From a virus, in IMG/VR virus record IMGVR_UViG_3300025921_000058, positions 1-30,879 of that record: DNA of 30,879 bases. One strand, given 5' to 3'. Made by a program: the position numbers and the translations under genes. Of the stretch, positions 24,612 to 28,917 are shown one piece after another. The stretch's first letter is position 1. The number at the start of each line of letters is the position of its first letter. A model generated the notes under the pieces. That model saw only the letters and a list, made by a program, of their open reading frames with translations. It had not been told where the DNA came from and searched no databases.

Positions 24612-24859
24612 TAGTCATTTTGCTCTGGAGTTTTTGCGCTACGACGTGCGCGTGCCCGCTGGAGCGCCTGGCGTAAGGTAGAGCGCGACACATTATGGGC
24701 TGTACACAGCGCCTTATCAGTGAGCATTTTGCGCGCCTCTTTCTTGGCGAGGATGTCGTCCTCCGCGGCTTCGGTGAGACGGTAGTGGTAAGCGTGAGTA
24801 CGGGTGCTCACGATTCGCAGCTCCAGGTTTGTGTCTGACGCTTGAGCCATTTGGGCCAT
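24611..24859 (-). CDS. Small helix-turn-helix protein
   Basis: An 82-residue protein. The C-terminal half has LTDKALCTAHNVSRSTLRQA, a helix-turn-helix of the type LxxKxLxxxxxVSxxTLRxA, in a basic context (QRARARRSAKTPEQND). The N-terminal half is acidic-helical. It could regulate the adjacent packaging genes or assist the small terminase; this is inferred from position only. ATG 24859 has a weak GAAAG site; ATG 24850 is an alternative. It overlaps the preceding gene by 52 nt and the small terminase by 1 nt (TAATG). Confidence 0.6.
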   Translation of the reverse strand: MAQMAQASDTNLELRIVSTRTHAYHYRLTEAAEDDILAKKEARKMLTDKALCTAHNVSRSTLRQALQRARARRSAKTPEQND

Positions 24860-25356
24860 TCGATCTTTCGTGTGAAGCTCTTGTCCTCGAACAGCGTTCG
24901 GTCGGTCGGCTGTGCGGTGTACCGGCCGTTATCCAACGCGATCAGCGTGAACTCCTTGCCCTGGTCAGGGTGCGCTGACCACGGGTCGCCGATCGGGACA
25001 ATGGTGCAGATATACTGGCCGGCCTGCTCAGATCCATCACGAAGCCGAGTCGTCACCTTTCTTCCCGCCAGGAAGGTGTACTCGAGGACAGAGAACTCGC
25101 GGCCGTAGCAGTCCCACGTCTGTGCGTGCTGGGGTTCCCATCCTTGGTCGGTCGGACGGCTCGCGAGCTGATGGAGTGGCACATTGCGGTAGATGGCGCC
25201 GCACTCAAGCAGTACGTGACATCCCCACACCCGGCCGGGATAGCTCGATAGGCCGAACCAGGCTACGGGAAGCCAGCCGTGCTCACCGATCGCGTTGGGC
25301 TGGAGGTAGCAGTACTGGTGAGTCAGGAGCGAGCCTGATCCGGTGCAAAGGGTCAC
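24808..25356 (-). CDS. Hypothetical protein
   Basis: A 182-residue protein with no internal methionine. GTG 25356 is the only sensible start and has AGGAG about 10-11 nt upstream. Trp, Tyr and Cys are abundant in the first 100 residues (GEHGWLPVAWFGLSSYPGRV; GWEPQHAQTWDCYGREFSV), followed by a beta-strand-rich half. I recognise no family. Position between RusA-like and terminase genes suggests an early or accessory function. The end overlaps the next gene by 52 nt. Confidence 0.6.
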   Translation of the reverse strand: MTLCTGSGSLLTHQYCYLQPNAIGEHGWLPVAWFGLSSYPGRVWGCHVLLECGAIYRNVPLHQLASRPTDQGWEPQHAQTWDCYGREFSVLEYTFLAGRKVTTRLRDGSEQAGQYICTIVPIGDPWSAHPDQGKEFTLIALDNGRYTAQPTDRTLFEDKSFTRKIEWPKWLKRQTQTWSCES

Positions 25357-26320: not shown

Positions 26321-26529
26321 GCGCTCTTCCTCGAATGTCCGGCCAACATGTTCTCGTGTTGCTCACACAGCGCCCGCGCCTTCTCATCAGTGGGTTCAAC
26401 GCCTAGATCACGACTGGTACCAAAAGGCGTCAGCTCGTAACCGATCCAATTCTCTTCCGTGGCCTGCACGACGCAATATCGCTTGTCAGTGGTGTGCTGG
26501 ACAGCGCCGTTAGGTTTGTCCCATTTCAT
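26317..26529 (-). CDS. Hypothetical small protein
   Basis: A 70-residue protein (MKWDKPNGAVQHTTDKRYCV). Predominantly a small alpha/beta sequence: two strands around residues 15-35 (YCVVQATEENWIGYELTPFG) and a C-terminal helix (DEKARALCEQHENMLAGHS). No known motif. It overlaps the end of the P-like gene by ATGA (26526-26529) and the following gene by GTGA, so it is coupled on both sides. Confidence 0.65.
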   Translation of the reverse strand: MKWDKPNGAVQHTTDKRYCVVQATEENWIGYELTPFGTSRDLGVEPTDEKARALCEQHENMLAGHSRKSA

Positions 26530-27125
26530 GCCGCTTTACCCCGCAGTAACACGACGATGTCGTCTTCGGCCCGCTTCATACAGTCGGCAAACTGCCGGGC
26601 CTGTTCATCCTCGGACAGCCTAACGATTTCACCGGTAGAGGTGTCTACCGTTTGAGACTCCCTCATGTCCTGCGCCCAGGCGTTTTTGTATGCAACAGCA
26701 ATCCTTGTCGCTTCGGCATGTTGAGTTGAGCCAGGCGCGCCCCATGGACGGTGAAAGTCCATGAGTCGATGCGAAATGTACTTCCAGAATCGCATATTTC
26801 CCGAAACATCCCAGCCGTCGAACTGCGGTCCTTCTATCGCCGGCACTGGGACATGCTCCGAAGGTCCCTCGTCAGGCGCGCTATCCCCGATTGCGATGCA
26901 GAAACGCACGAAGTCAGGGAGATTCGGTACCCCGCCCTTCCATCCGTAGCGCAAGCGCTTGAAGCCGCGCCGGATCTGAAAATCGTTGAGCTCGGCGATA
27001 GCCTCGACCCATTCCTCGGGAGGTTCGGAATCGAACTTCCGCAGAAGTCCGTCACCGAAGTAGCCCAGCAGTCTGTCCCAAACTGCCTTCGCTCGATCCT
27101 GATTGTTCGCTGACCACTCGCCCAT
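26526..27125 (-). CDS. Replication protein P-like (helicase loader candidate)
   Basis: A 199-residue protein directly after the O-like initiator, where lambda and many relatives encode the helicase loader P. The N-terminal helix ends in WDRLLGYFGDGLLRKFDS, followed by EWVEAIAELNDFQIRRGFKR, then LRYGWKGGVPNLPDFVRFCI. The pattern (helix, LxDFQIRRGxxxL, then PxLPDFVxxC) recurs in P-type loaders. No Walker motifs are present, consistent with lambda P type rather than DnaC type. ATG 27125 overlaps the O-like gene by 74 nt out of frame. Role inferred from position and pattern. Confidence 0.65.
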   Translation of the reverse strand: MGEWSANNQDRAKAVWDRLLGYFGDGLLRKFDSEPPEEWVEAIAELNDFQIRRGFKRLRYGWKGGVPNLPDFVRFCIAIGDSAPDEGPSEHVPVPAIEGPQFDGWDVSGNMRFWKYISHRLMDFHRPWGAPGSTQHAEATRIAVAYKNAWAQDMRESQTVDTSTGEIVRLSEDEQARQFADCMKRAEDDIVVLLRGKAA

Positions 27126-27942
27126 TGCCGTTCACCGATTGCCGTAGTTTCTGACGCGCTTGCGCCACCGCAGACAGAGCGGGCGCAGGAGGTCCGCGAG
27201 CGAACCTCAATCCGTTCTCGATGCGAGTCGCGTCGCGCAGGAATAGCGAGATGTCGTCGTAAACCGTGCGCTGGTCGTTCTCGCCCATGTGGTGCGGCGA
27301 GTTACGGTATCCGGAGATCGACTGGCGCAGCGTTTCCTCGTCGTGCAGCTTGAGCGCCGCCTGAATCACGCGCCGACGTTTGGGATCTAGGACAGCCTTT
27401 CGGTGTCCGAACTCCGATCGCCAGTGCTCAAAGACCCTCTCCACCGGCCCGGTGTCGAGCTTTTGCTCGACAGGGTTCGAAGAACCCTCTTCTTTCTTTT
27501 CTTCTCTGGAGTCAGGAGTCAGGAGTCCGGAGTCAGGAGTCAGAGAAGAGGGAGTCAGACGGGCTCGCCCTTGCCTAGGTTGTGGCTCGTCTGGTGCTTG
27601 CACCGTGCTTGCACCGTGCTCGCATGGTGCTGGTATGGTGCTAGCACCTTCCTTTATGTGAGGGTGCTGGTGCTTCTTCCAGGCGAGTATCTGAATGTAC
27701 CGGACCGTTCCATGGCTATACCTCTGGATGAACCCGCGATCGTGTAGAGCCTGCAGTCCAGCGTCGACATCGACGTTATCGCCGGGGAACACGTTCAGCT
27801 TGATCTTCTTCGGACGGTCCTCTAGCCGCCCTTCCCTGTCGGCCAAGCACCATAGACCAGCGAACAAGAGCCGGTACTCGAAGGGCAGCTCGATGAGGTC
27901 CTCGTTGTGGAAGAATCCTGGCTTGAGACCCCGCGCTCTCAA
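27052..27942 (-). CDS. Replication initiator O-like protein
   Basis: A 296-residue protein. The N-terminal domain (residues 1-95) reads RGLKPGFFHNEDLIELPFEY, RLLFAGLWCLADREGRLEDR, then PKKIKLNVFPGDNVDVD and RYIQILAWKKHQHPH, a common phage winged-helix initiator pattern. Residues 96-160 are a flexible linker. Residues 165-250 form a second helical domain (EHWRSEFGHRKAVLDPKRRR). This mirrors lambda O: DNA-binding head, linker, and P-binding tail. The start is TTG 27942 (TTGA overlap with the upstream gene); no internal ATG exists in the conserved N-terminus. Its linker-coding DNA carries the repeats described as the candidate origin. Confidence 0.75.
   Translation of the reverse strand: MRARGLKPGFFHNEDLIELPFEYRLLFAGLWCLADREGRLEDRPKKIKLNVFPGDNVDVDAGLQALHDRGFIQRYSHGTVRYIQILAWKKHQHPHIKEGASTIPAPCEHGASTVQAPDEPQPRQGRARLTPSSLTPDSGLLTPDSREEKKEEGSSNPVEQKLDTGPVERVFEHWRSEFGHRKAVLDPKRRRVIQAALKLHDEETLRQSISGYRNSPHHMGENDQRTVYDDISLFLRDATRIENGLRFARGPPAPALSAVAQARQKLRQSVNGNGRVVSEQSGSSEGSLGQTAGLLR
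27508..27557 (+). repeat. 7-bp tandem repeats (GGAGTCA)
   Basis: Five back-to-back heptamers at 27508-27542 (GGAGTCA, GGAGTCA, GGAGTCC, GGAGTCA, GGAGTCA) and a sixth GGAGTCA at 27551-27557 after an 8-bp purine spacer. They lie between the 11-bp iterons and the homopyrimidine tract. They could be a second protein-binding array or part of a melting region. The array encodes a Leu/Thr/Pro/Asp/Ser-rich part of the O-like linker. Confidence 0.85.
27594..27648 (+). repeat. Five tandem 11-bp iterons
   Basis: Five consecutive 11-bp units: GTGCTTGCACC, GTGCTTGCACC, GTGCTCGCATG, GTGCTGGTATG and GTGCTAGCACC. The first two are identical; units three and four differ at three or four positions. Units one, two and five contain GTGC-TN-GCAC, an interrupted palindrome. 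One unit per helical turn would place bound initiator molecules on one face of the DNA. They encode residues about 98-116 of the O-like protein. Confidence 0.85.
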
Positions 27943-28091
27943 GGCAGAGGATTCCCGCTGACTAAGGCCAACACGCCGAACACGACCCCGAGAAGCGCTA
28001 TCAGCGATCCGATCACGATCAGCGGATTGGGCGTGTCGTGATCCGGCTCGTCAGGCTGGTGCCACTTCGAGTACTTCACGGGACTACGCAT
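27939..28091 (-). CDS. Small single-pass membrane protein
   Basis: A 50-residue protein, MRSPVKYSKWHQPDEPDHDT, followed by a hydrophobic helix (PLIVIGSLIALLGVVFGVLA). It starts at ATG 28091 with AAGGTGA upstream and ends overlapping the TTG start of the O-like gene (TTGA at 27939-27942). The clean hydrophobic segment and both junctions support translation. Function unknown; it may anchor early replication complexes or be an unrelated early membrane protein. Confidence 0.6.
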   Translation of the reverse strand: MRSPVKYSKWHQPDEPDHDTPNPLIVIGSLIALLGVVFGVLALVSGNPLP

Positions 28092-28094
28092 TCG

Positions 28095-28370
28095 TCACCT
28101 TTGACCCTGGAACAATGAGGCCAATGAATTTATGTTGGCCTGCTGCTGTATAGCGGCCTGGCTCAGTAGCTGGTTCTGATACGCGCTTTGGTAAGGCTCC
28201 AGCGGGGACGGCTTCTTAATATGCCGACGCATCGCCTGCTGCCTTTCCCACCACTCGCGATCAACAGCACGGCGCACGTCGACATACTTCTGCCCACTCT
28301 CCCGCCTATCGATCCAGGCGTTAAGGAGCTGAAGGTTTGTGGGTGACAGGTGCTCGTCGATGTACTTCAT
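28095..28370 (-). CDS. Hypothetical helical protein, first gene of replication block
   Basis: A 91-residue protein, MKYIDEHLSPTNLQLLNAWI. It is rich in Arg and Gln with a helical centre (RRAVDREWWERQQAMRRHIK) and a Gln/Asn-rich tail (QNQLLSQAAIQQQANINSLA). A clear TGGAGG site precedes ATG 28370. It follows a 229-bp untranslated stretch with terminator-like structures, so it is probably expressed only when transcription from the Cro promoter reads through, or from a local promoter. No family recognised. Confidence 0.65.
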   Translation of the reverse strand: MKYIDEHLSPTNLQLLNAWIDRRESGQKYVDVRRAVDREWWERQQAMRRHIKKPSPLEPYQSAYQNQLLSQAAIQQQANINSLASLFQGQR

Positions 28371-28451
28371 CGATTTAGCCTCCAGCCGCAGCGCAACAAG
28401 GCACCGCGTTTGCTGGGATGAGGGGTTCGGCTTGCTCTACAGAGCGCAGCC

Positions 28452-28507
28452 AAAAAAAACCAACTATGTACGGCAGCGCACCGAACAGACTTCCTACATG
28501 CCGTACA
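28452..28507 (-). other. Inverted repeat followed by T8 (attenuator or operator pair)
   Basis: Two 9-bp arms, TGTACGGCA (28467-28475) and TGCCGTACA (28499-28507), are perfect inverses with a 23-nt spacer. On the minus strand the second arm is followed after 7 nt by eight T residues (28452-28459), as in an attenuator. The arms also resemble the GTACAGCAT half-sites of the control region (GTACGGCA versus GTACAGCA), with nearly the same pair span (39 versus 37-38 bp), but no -35 box lies between them. A third related site, ATGCTGTGA, is at 28526-28534. Either reading is possible. Confidence 0.45.
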
Positions 28508-28548
28508 CCCTCGCTGGGGGACTGCATGCTGTGACGTATCCCTCGCCC

Positions 28549-28577
28549 AAAAAAAGGGGCGGCGGTTAAGCTGCCCC
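28549..28577 (-). terminator. Intrinsic terminator (leftward)
   Basis: On the minus strand GGGGCAGC (28577-28570) pairs with GCCGCCCC (28563-28556) across a 6-nt loop, giving an 8-bp GC-rich stem with one G-U pair, followed directly by seven T residues (28555-28549). It lies between the Cro-like gene and the replication genes. It also lies just upstream of the rightward lipoprotein gene's ribosome-binding site. Confidence 0.7.
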
Positions 28578-28599
28578 GAGTCTTGGGAGGATCGATACG

Positions 28600-28917
28600 A
28601 TGAAAATCGCTATTTTCGCTGCGGTTACGCTGCTGTTGAGCGGATGTATGGAAGAAATCAACAAGCCATTTGCACAGCTGACTATCGCGGATCTGCTGCG
28701 GCTTATGGGTCAGCTCGCAGGAATCGCCATTACAGTATGGCTGGCATGGAAACTGTTCGAGTGGCTGAGAGAGCAGCTTCCACGAAGGCTGGCTGCGTGG
28801 CGCGTTGAATCTCAGTACATCAGCACACCCGTACGCCGGGGATTTATTCTCATAGTTATTATGGTGTTGACAGCTATTGGAGTTTCGGTCTGTACGCTGA
28901 TTGCTAATAAGCAATAA
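28600..28917 (+). CDS. Lipoprotein with membrane segments (moron candidate)
   Basis: A 105-residue protein starting MKIAIFAAVTLLLSGCMEEI, with lipobox LSGC (Cys16). Two further hydrophobic segments follow: LMGQLAGIAITVWLAWKLFE (about 35-54) and GFILIVIMVLTAIGVSVCTL (about 80-100). ATG 28600 is preceded by GGGAGGA at a good distance. It is transcribed against its surroundings, between the leftward terminator at 28549 and the one at 29241. Small lipoproteins encoded in phage immunity regions can block superinfection or alter receptors, which is a possible role here. An antisense frame of 293 codons (28375-29256) has no recognisable content and was rejected. Confidence 0.65.
   Translation: MKIAIFAAVTLLLSGCMEEINKPFAQLTIADLLRLMGQLAGIAITVWLAWKLFEWLREQLPRRLAAWRVESQYISTPVRRGFILIVIMVLTAIGVSVCTLIANKQ

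What the first reader, a model, noticed from the sequence alone, without database searches (positions are those of the whole stretch)
27455..27648. Compact candidate replication origin inside the O-like initiator gene
Seen: five tandem 11-bp near-palindromic repeats, six 7-bp repeats (five in tandem), a homopyrimidine tract and two perfect hairpins (7-bp stem with 3-nt loop; 6-bp stem with TTTT loop), all within 194 bp. Because 11 and 7 are not multiples of three, coding for a repeated peptide cannot explain them, so the DNA itself is probably under selection. Known: lambda has its origin in the same part of gene O, with palindromic iterons beside a strand-biased tract. Inferred: this is the phage origin, with a two-array design (11-mer plus 7-mer) that I do not recognise from well-studied lambdoid phages.
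Basis: partly seen in the sequence, partly recalled or inferred. Interest (0 to 1): 0.75.

Follow-up and report, generated by a model that had tools for sequence, protein, structure and literature searches.

The report
Two-array phage origin inside initiator gene
A stretch of DNA inside a phage's replication-start gene carries two sets of short repeats that recur, in the same order, in related initiator genes of viruses and prophages from many bacterial phyla, and comparison across them says it is very probably the place where these viruses begin copying their DNA.

Summary
Window 27453-27648 holds five 11-mers, six 7-mers, the window's only purine/pyrimidine run of 14 or more bases, and two perfect hairpins, all inside a PHROG-16167 'replication initiation protein' gene (27052-27942, minus strand). 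Protein-preserving codon shuffles almost never reproduce the periods (1 and 4 of 10,000; never both). In 119 non-redundant homologous genes from many phyla the main excess periods are 7/14/15/21/28 and 11/22/33. The 7-mer (CTGATTC; CTGACTC here) appears at least three times in 89 of 122 genes. A pure tandem would put TGA stops in frame; the arrays avoid this with 7+8 spacing or a TGA->GGA copy, exactly as the window does at 27523-27529. In another lineage the array is non-coding and perfect, with the same initiator 2-4 kb away. Actinophages keep the design with a different 8-mer (GGAACAGG). Best explanation: the phage origin, with 11-mers as duplex sites for the initiator's winged-helix domain and 7-mers plus purine tract as the opening element. 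The initiator does not match lambda O by profile; its layout resembles pSK41 RepA (ori-encoded linker between DNA-binding and C-terminal domains). Binding and replication are untested. New variant of a known kind.

The parts
27052..27942 (-). Initiator gene (296 aa from TTG at 27942): winged-helix N-domain (res 1-100), ori-encoded disordered linker, helical C-domain
   Evidence: PHROG 16167 E=2.3e-67, 12556, 1408 'replication initiation protein'; AF2 model pLDDT>90 over most of res 20-90, <60 over 111-160, helical C part
27593..27648 (-). Array of five 11-bp near-palindromic repeats (GGTGCNAGCAC type); proposed initiator binding sites on duplex DNA, one per helical turn
   Evidence: family consensus AAGCACNGTGC; spacing fixed at 11
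27509..27543 (-). Five tandem 7-bp repeats CTGACTC; the third (27523-27529) is CGGACTC, the one whose perfect form would be an in-frame TGA stop
27552..27558 (-). Sixth 7-mer CTGACTC, 15 bp from the tandem block
27485..27507 (-). 23-nt homopurine tract (coding strand); with the 7-mers, a stretch of low duplex stability (60-bp windows z about +2)
27472..27488 (-). Hairpin A, 7-bp stem, TTC loop; seen in the close relative L003/L292 (AGAGTTC/GAACTCT) and in L004 with a different stem
27453..27472 (-). Hairpin B, 8-bp stem, AAAA loop; 7-bp core kept in all 9 C-domain sequences aligned, with changes on both sides of 3 pairs
26526..27125 (-). Overlapping downstream gene, probably a P-like helicase loader
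   Evidence: 39-42% identical to L004/L005 proteins that match PHROG 109 'P-like helicase loader' E=1.5e-6 and 6e-9; the window protein itself has no direct match

Best explanation
The element is the phage's origin of replication, embedded in the disordered-linker segment of its own initiator gene. Proposed mechanism: (1) the N-terminal winged-helix domain binds the 11-mer array, near-palindromic sites exactly one helical turn apart, so the bound units line up on one face of the DNA; (2) the strain of this assembly opens the adjacent 7-mer array and purine tract, and the 7-mers are probably read as single strands, because spacings of 7 and 8 are tolerated about equally while the 11-mers are fixed at 11; (3) the C-domain and the overlapping P-like gene product load the helicase; in some lineages a hairpin just past the 7-mers may help helicase or primase entry. 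Shown here: the repeats, their selection as DNA, their conservation, order and linkage to the initiator. Inferred: binding, opening, ssDNA reading, loading.
For: Gene identity: PHROG replication initiation families. Period spectrum in 119 non-redundant homologues against synonymous shuffles: 7/14/15/21/28 and 11/22/33 stand out in the linker, nothing in the N-domain. At least three CTGATTC slots in 89 of 122 genes; phase-gap rule, and the 25 slots that would be stops read GGA 19, CGA 4, AGA 1, CTA 1. An exact 21-base array pattern hits at least 120 viral loci: 93 of 96 coding hits sit in an ORF with this N-domain; 24 are non-coding with near-constant spacing and 99% exact copies, and 12 of these have the initiator gene 2-4 kb away or, in L215, just upstream. 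11-mers precede 7-mers in 36 of 37 genes and their spacing is 11 in 14 of 15 free extensions. A different 8-mer, GGAACAGG, in actinophages: 98 of 120 loci in a homologous initiator ORF, with an 11-bp period upstream in 47. Named phages (HK639, Louie, LESphi2, Fyn8, IFTN4, JBD44 and others) carry the array in the same gene, several next to annotated helicase-loader or DnaB genes. Precedent: pSK41 ori lies centrally in rep and encodes a dispensable linker (PMC5703833).
Against: No binding or replication data for any family member were found. GC skew does not point anywhere clearly. The 7-mer of this GC-rich phage is not AT-rich (43% A+T). Which protein reads the 7-mer is unknown. 11-mer sequence co-varies only weakly with N-domain sequence (rho 0.16, p 0.03), so N-domain to 11-mer recognition is poorly supported by covariation. 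Some non-coding hits (L184, L203, L211, L269) have no initiator in the DNA held.
Confidence: 0.88

Rival explanations
1. The repeats exist for the protein: a repetitive, disordered linker peptide (L-I/T-P-D-S) is selected and the DNA repeats are a by-product.
For: The 7-mers do encode LTPDS/LIPDS repeats, the linker is predicted disordered, and disordered linkers tolerate repeats.
Against: Codon shuffles that keep the protein destroy the periods. Non-coding copies of the array are even more regular. In phase-2 copies almost only the stop-forming triplet departs from the 7-mer. 11-mers run through all three frames.
Confidence: 0.03
2. The arrays are a control or segregation site (operator for auto-repression, copy-number control or a centromere-like site) rather than the start of replication.
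For: wHTH proteins with tandem palindromic sites also serve as repressors and centromere binders; wHTH fold hits include TubR and other centromere binders. A non-coding array in one lineage lies near a CI-like repressor gene.
Against: The gene family is replication initiation, next to helicase loader or DnaB genes in named phages. No promoter-like site in 26900-28600. A second element of low duplex stability is typical of origins. Dual use (origin plus auto-repression) is possible.
Confidence: 0.08
3. Slippage-born microsatellites with no function.
For: Tandem short repeats with varying copy number arise by slippage (general knowledge; copy number does vary).
Against: Same 7-mer sequence, same place and same order across phyla; near-exclusive linkage to one initiator family.
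Confidence: 0.01

Closest known systems
pSK41 RepA (RepA_N plasmid family) with ori inside rep
   Same: N-terminal winged-helix domain, central linker encoded by the ori, C-terminal helical domain; iterons centrally in the initiator gene; modules swap (pPR9 keeps the CTD but has a different NTD and ori), as L002-L005 do here (PMC5703833)
   Different: No Pfam RepA_N match; fold match to pSK41-type RepA is not above other winged helices (Z 6.5-7.7); pSK41 has four Rep boxes and no 7-mer array in the text read; here 11-mers plus 7-mers plus purine tract
Phage lambda ori in gene O
   Same: Iterons and a strand-asymmetric purine tract inside the initiator gene, loader gene P-like downstream (PMC5043065)
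   Different: Protein does not match lambda O families by profile; from memory lambda has four 18-bp iterons and an AT-rich tract, no 7-mer array
Iteron plasmids with repeated opening elements (RK2 13-mers, P1 oriR)
   Same: One array binds the initiator on duplex DNA, a second repeat set is the opening element; in RK2 and F the initiator also binds the single-stranded opening element (PMC5043065). P1 heptamers: from memory.
   Different: Initiator unrelated by profile; 7-mers here are not AT-rich or GATC-type and lie in a coding frame

Membership tests
PHROG 16167-type phage replication initiation proteins | Profile match over most of the protein | tested here: met
   E=2.3e-67 over residues 1-255
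Lambda O family (Pfam Phage_rep_O / PHROG 277) | Profile match of the initiator | tested here: not met
   No Pfam match at E<=0.01 (no Phage_rep_O among 39 relatives either) and no PHROG 277 in the window's list
Lambda-type in-gene iteron origin (what it works like) | Tandem palindromic iterons inside the initiator gene beside a purine-asymmetric tract | tested here: met
Lambda-type in-gene iteron origin (what it works like) | P-like helicase loader overlapping or next to the initiator | tested here: inconclusive
   Only through relatives: L004/L005 match PHROG 109; window protein 39-42% identical to them
Lambda-type in-gene iteron origin (what it works like) | Initiator binds the iterons and the fragment supports replication | not testable with these tools
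   needs purified protein and a replication assay
RepA_N plasmid initiators (PF06970) | Pfam RepA_N match | tested here: not met
   No Pfam match
RepA_N plasmid initiators (PF06970) | NTD fold like pSK41/pTZ2162 RepA | tested here: inconclusive
   Hits 4pql Z 7.7, 4pt7 Z 7.2, 5kbj Z 6.7 with about 85 residues aligned, but tied with Fur and other winged helices
RepA_N plasmid initiators (PF06970) | Ori inside the gene, encoding the linker between NTD and CTD | tested here: inconclusive
   Arrays encode about residues 99-153 and the model is disordered over 111-160, so the layout fits; that the arrays are the ori is inferred

The most novel reading that the evidence does not exclude
The 7-mer (CTGATTC, or GGAACAG in actinophages) is a general phage origin-opening code, read as single-stranded DNA with 7- or 8-nt steps by the initiator or a conserved host factor, kept across bacterial phyla even though it collides with the reading frame; the family's stop-codon evasion is the footprint of that constraint.
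Probability: 0.4. Interest if true: 0.85.

Novelty: new variant of a known kind. Interest (0 to 1): 0.72.

Why it matters
It gives a sequence-defined origin for a very large group of phages and prophages (529 viral loci matched one N-domain search) in which the records fetched here annotate no origin. It offers a candidate opening element for wHTH/DnaD-like initiators, for which, in the case of RepA_N proteins, the way they start replication was stated to be unknown (PMC7145576). It is also a clean natural case of DNA function and reading frame in conflict, with two recurrent solutions and a non-coding control.

Tried and rejected
GC skew of the window: too weak to locate an origin. Near-identical phages by megablast: none. 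Pfam for the initiator: nothing. PDB sequence search with the N-domain profile: nothing credible. Rfam: nothing. Promoter scan: none; the two 'terminator-like' hits are on + and are hairpin A and part of the 11-mer palindromes. Covariation of N-domain with 11-mer sequence: weak (rho 0.16, p 0.03), no association with the C-domain. Literature: searches for 11-bp/7-bp phage origins, CTGATTC, Phage_rep_org_N, Tuc2009/TP901-1 and RepA_N showed no paper on this array among the hits listed; subscription papers are not held, so a prior description cannot be excluded. From memory, lactococcal replisome-organiser phages also have origins in the gene; I could not check their repeats. Considered and rejected: packaging site (the arrays recur with one initiator family, not with terminase genes) and a purely protein-level repeat.

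Full report
What is there. The window is a 30.9-kb viral contig with a P22-like portal and an Sf6-type small terminase. The finding lies in a gene on the minus strand, 27052-27942 (TTG start), that matches PHROG replication-initiation families, best 16167 at 2.3e-67. The protein has a confident winged-helix N-domain, a disordered linker (about 111-160) and a helical C-part; the arrays encode about residues 99-153, that is, mostly the linker.

Is it more than chance or coding? I shuffled synonymous codons within the gene, which keeps protein and codon usage. Only 1 of 10,000 shuffles reached the 7-bp periodicity, 4 the 11-bp periodicity, none both.

Relatives. Using the N-domain I fetched 65 loci from bacterial genomes and 80 from viral contigs; 122 genes remained after removing near-copies. 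In 119 of them long enough to test, the linker shows excess periodicity at 7, 14, 15, 21, 28 and at 11, 22, 33 and hardly elsewhere; the N-domain shows none. The 7-mer has one dominant sequence, CTGATTC, through most lineages; the window's CTGACTC is a variant. The 11-mers centre on AAGCACNGTGC with lineage variants. 11-mers come first in 36 of 37 genes and their spacing is fixed at 11. Genes that tandem-repeat software missed, including L075 (70% identical N-domain, the closest found in the viral search), mostly still contain several copies on inspection.

Stop-codon evasion. CTGATTC in perfect tandem puts TGA into any reading frame once every 21 bp. In coding arrays a copy in frame phase 0 is followed at 7 bp in 156 of 165 cases; a copy in phase 1 is followed at 8 bp (97), by a skipped copy at 14-15 bp (58), or at 7 bp (21). 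Of the 25 copies in the stop phase, 19 read GGA, 4 CGA, 1 AGA and 1 CTA in place of TGA, and the other positions stay almost fully consensus. The window follows the rule: its one imperfect tandem copy, CGGACTC at 27523-27529, is the one that would be a stop. That reading frames avoid stops is necessary; what is informative is that the 7-mer is otherwise kept.

A natural control. By my estimate well under one match is expected by chance in tens of gigabases (collection size not stated). 96 are coding, 93 of them in an ORF with this N-domain; the other three show no N-domain in the DNA held (L206 starts at a contig edge). 24 have no coding frame on the array strand: there spacing is constant (all 7 or all 8, except L159) and 99% of copies are exact, against 88% in coding arrays. 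In 11 of these the same initiator is encoded 2-4 kb away, without an array in the two proteins read (L166, L175), and in L215 the array follows an ORF that ends after the N-domain. One lineage dominates the non-coding set, so this counts as a few events. In L175 and the main non-coding lineage 11-bp-spaced palindromes precede the 7-mers, modestly above shuffles.

Second version of the design. Distant actinophage homologues (Bernal13, Butters, PFR1) have 11-mers of another sequence (TCGCGA-centred) followed by an 8-mer, GGAACAGG. A blind pattern search for it gave 120 loci, 98 inside an ORF with a homologous N-domain, and an 11-bp period upstream in 47 of them, far above neighbouring periods.

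Other elements. The purine tract 27485-27507 is the only such run in the window, and 60-bp windows over it and the 7-mers are about 2 sd less stable than average. Hairpin B is kept in all nine C-domain sequences aligned, with three pairs changed on both sides (five distinct sequences only). Across 96 genes, stems of 7 bp or more in the 130 nt after the 7-mers occur 18 times against 3.5 expected, with no excess in an upstream control. A possible entry site for helicase or primase is inference.

How it works. The layout, order, and the fixed 11-bp versus flexible 7/8-bp steps suggest duplex binding at the 11-mers and opening, perhaps single-strand reading, at the 7-mers; the downstream overlapping gene is probably a P-like loader. 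No step of this mechanism was tested. The closest described architecture is pSK41 RepA, with ori in the centre of rep encoding a dispensable linker and exchangeable N-domain/ori modules (PMC5703833); lambda is the second (PMC5043065). Membership in lambda O or RepA_N families is not met by profile; the fold comparison is inconclusive.

Verdict. Origin inside the initiator gene: very probable (0.88). The two-array design is a widespread, apparently undescribed variant of in-gene iteron origins; a prior description in papers not held cannot be excluded.

Noticed in passing
window 26526-27125 (-): Gene overlapping the initiator; no family match itself, but relatives (L004, L005) match PHROG 109 P-like helicase loader.
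   Followed up: yes
L002-L005 against window 27052-27500: The same C-domain is joined to quite different N-domains, each with its own repeats (10-mer CTCGCGAATC plus 6-mers, ACCAG repeats, GCTAGCA 11-mers plus AGAGG); initiator modules are swapped at the linker.
   Followed up: partly
L159 around the array: The CTGATTC array lies antisense to an ORF that looks like a different winged-helix initiator, with 11-bp repeats on the other flank: the same 7-mer, reversed, may serve another initiator type.
   Followed up: partly
L009 and L004 initiator genes: What looks like an HNH endonuclease domain sits between the N-domain and the arrays.
   Followed up: no
L203 near 4683: Perfect 8-bp CTGATTCT repeats among what look like phage baseplate/tail genes with no initiator found in the DNA held.
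   Followed up: no
window 24808-25356 (-): PHROG 3704 match, labelled ferredoxin / auxiliary gene.
   Followed up: no
L283, L284, L285 (actinophages), about 170-210 of the initiator gene: Extra 11-mers of the same type (TCGCGAGACAG, CGCGAGACCCT, TCTCGCGAGGG) inside the N-domain coding region.
   Followed up: no
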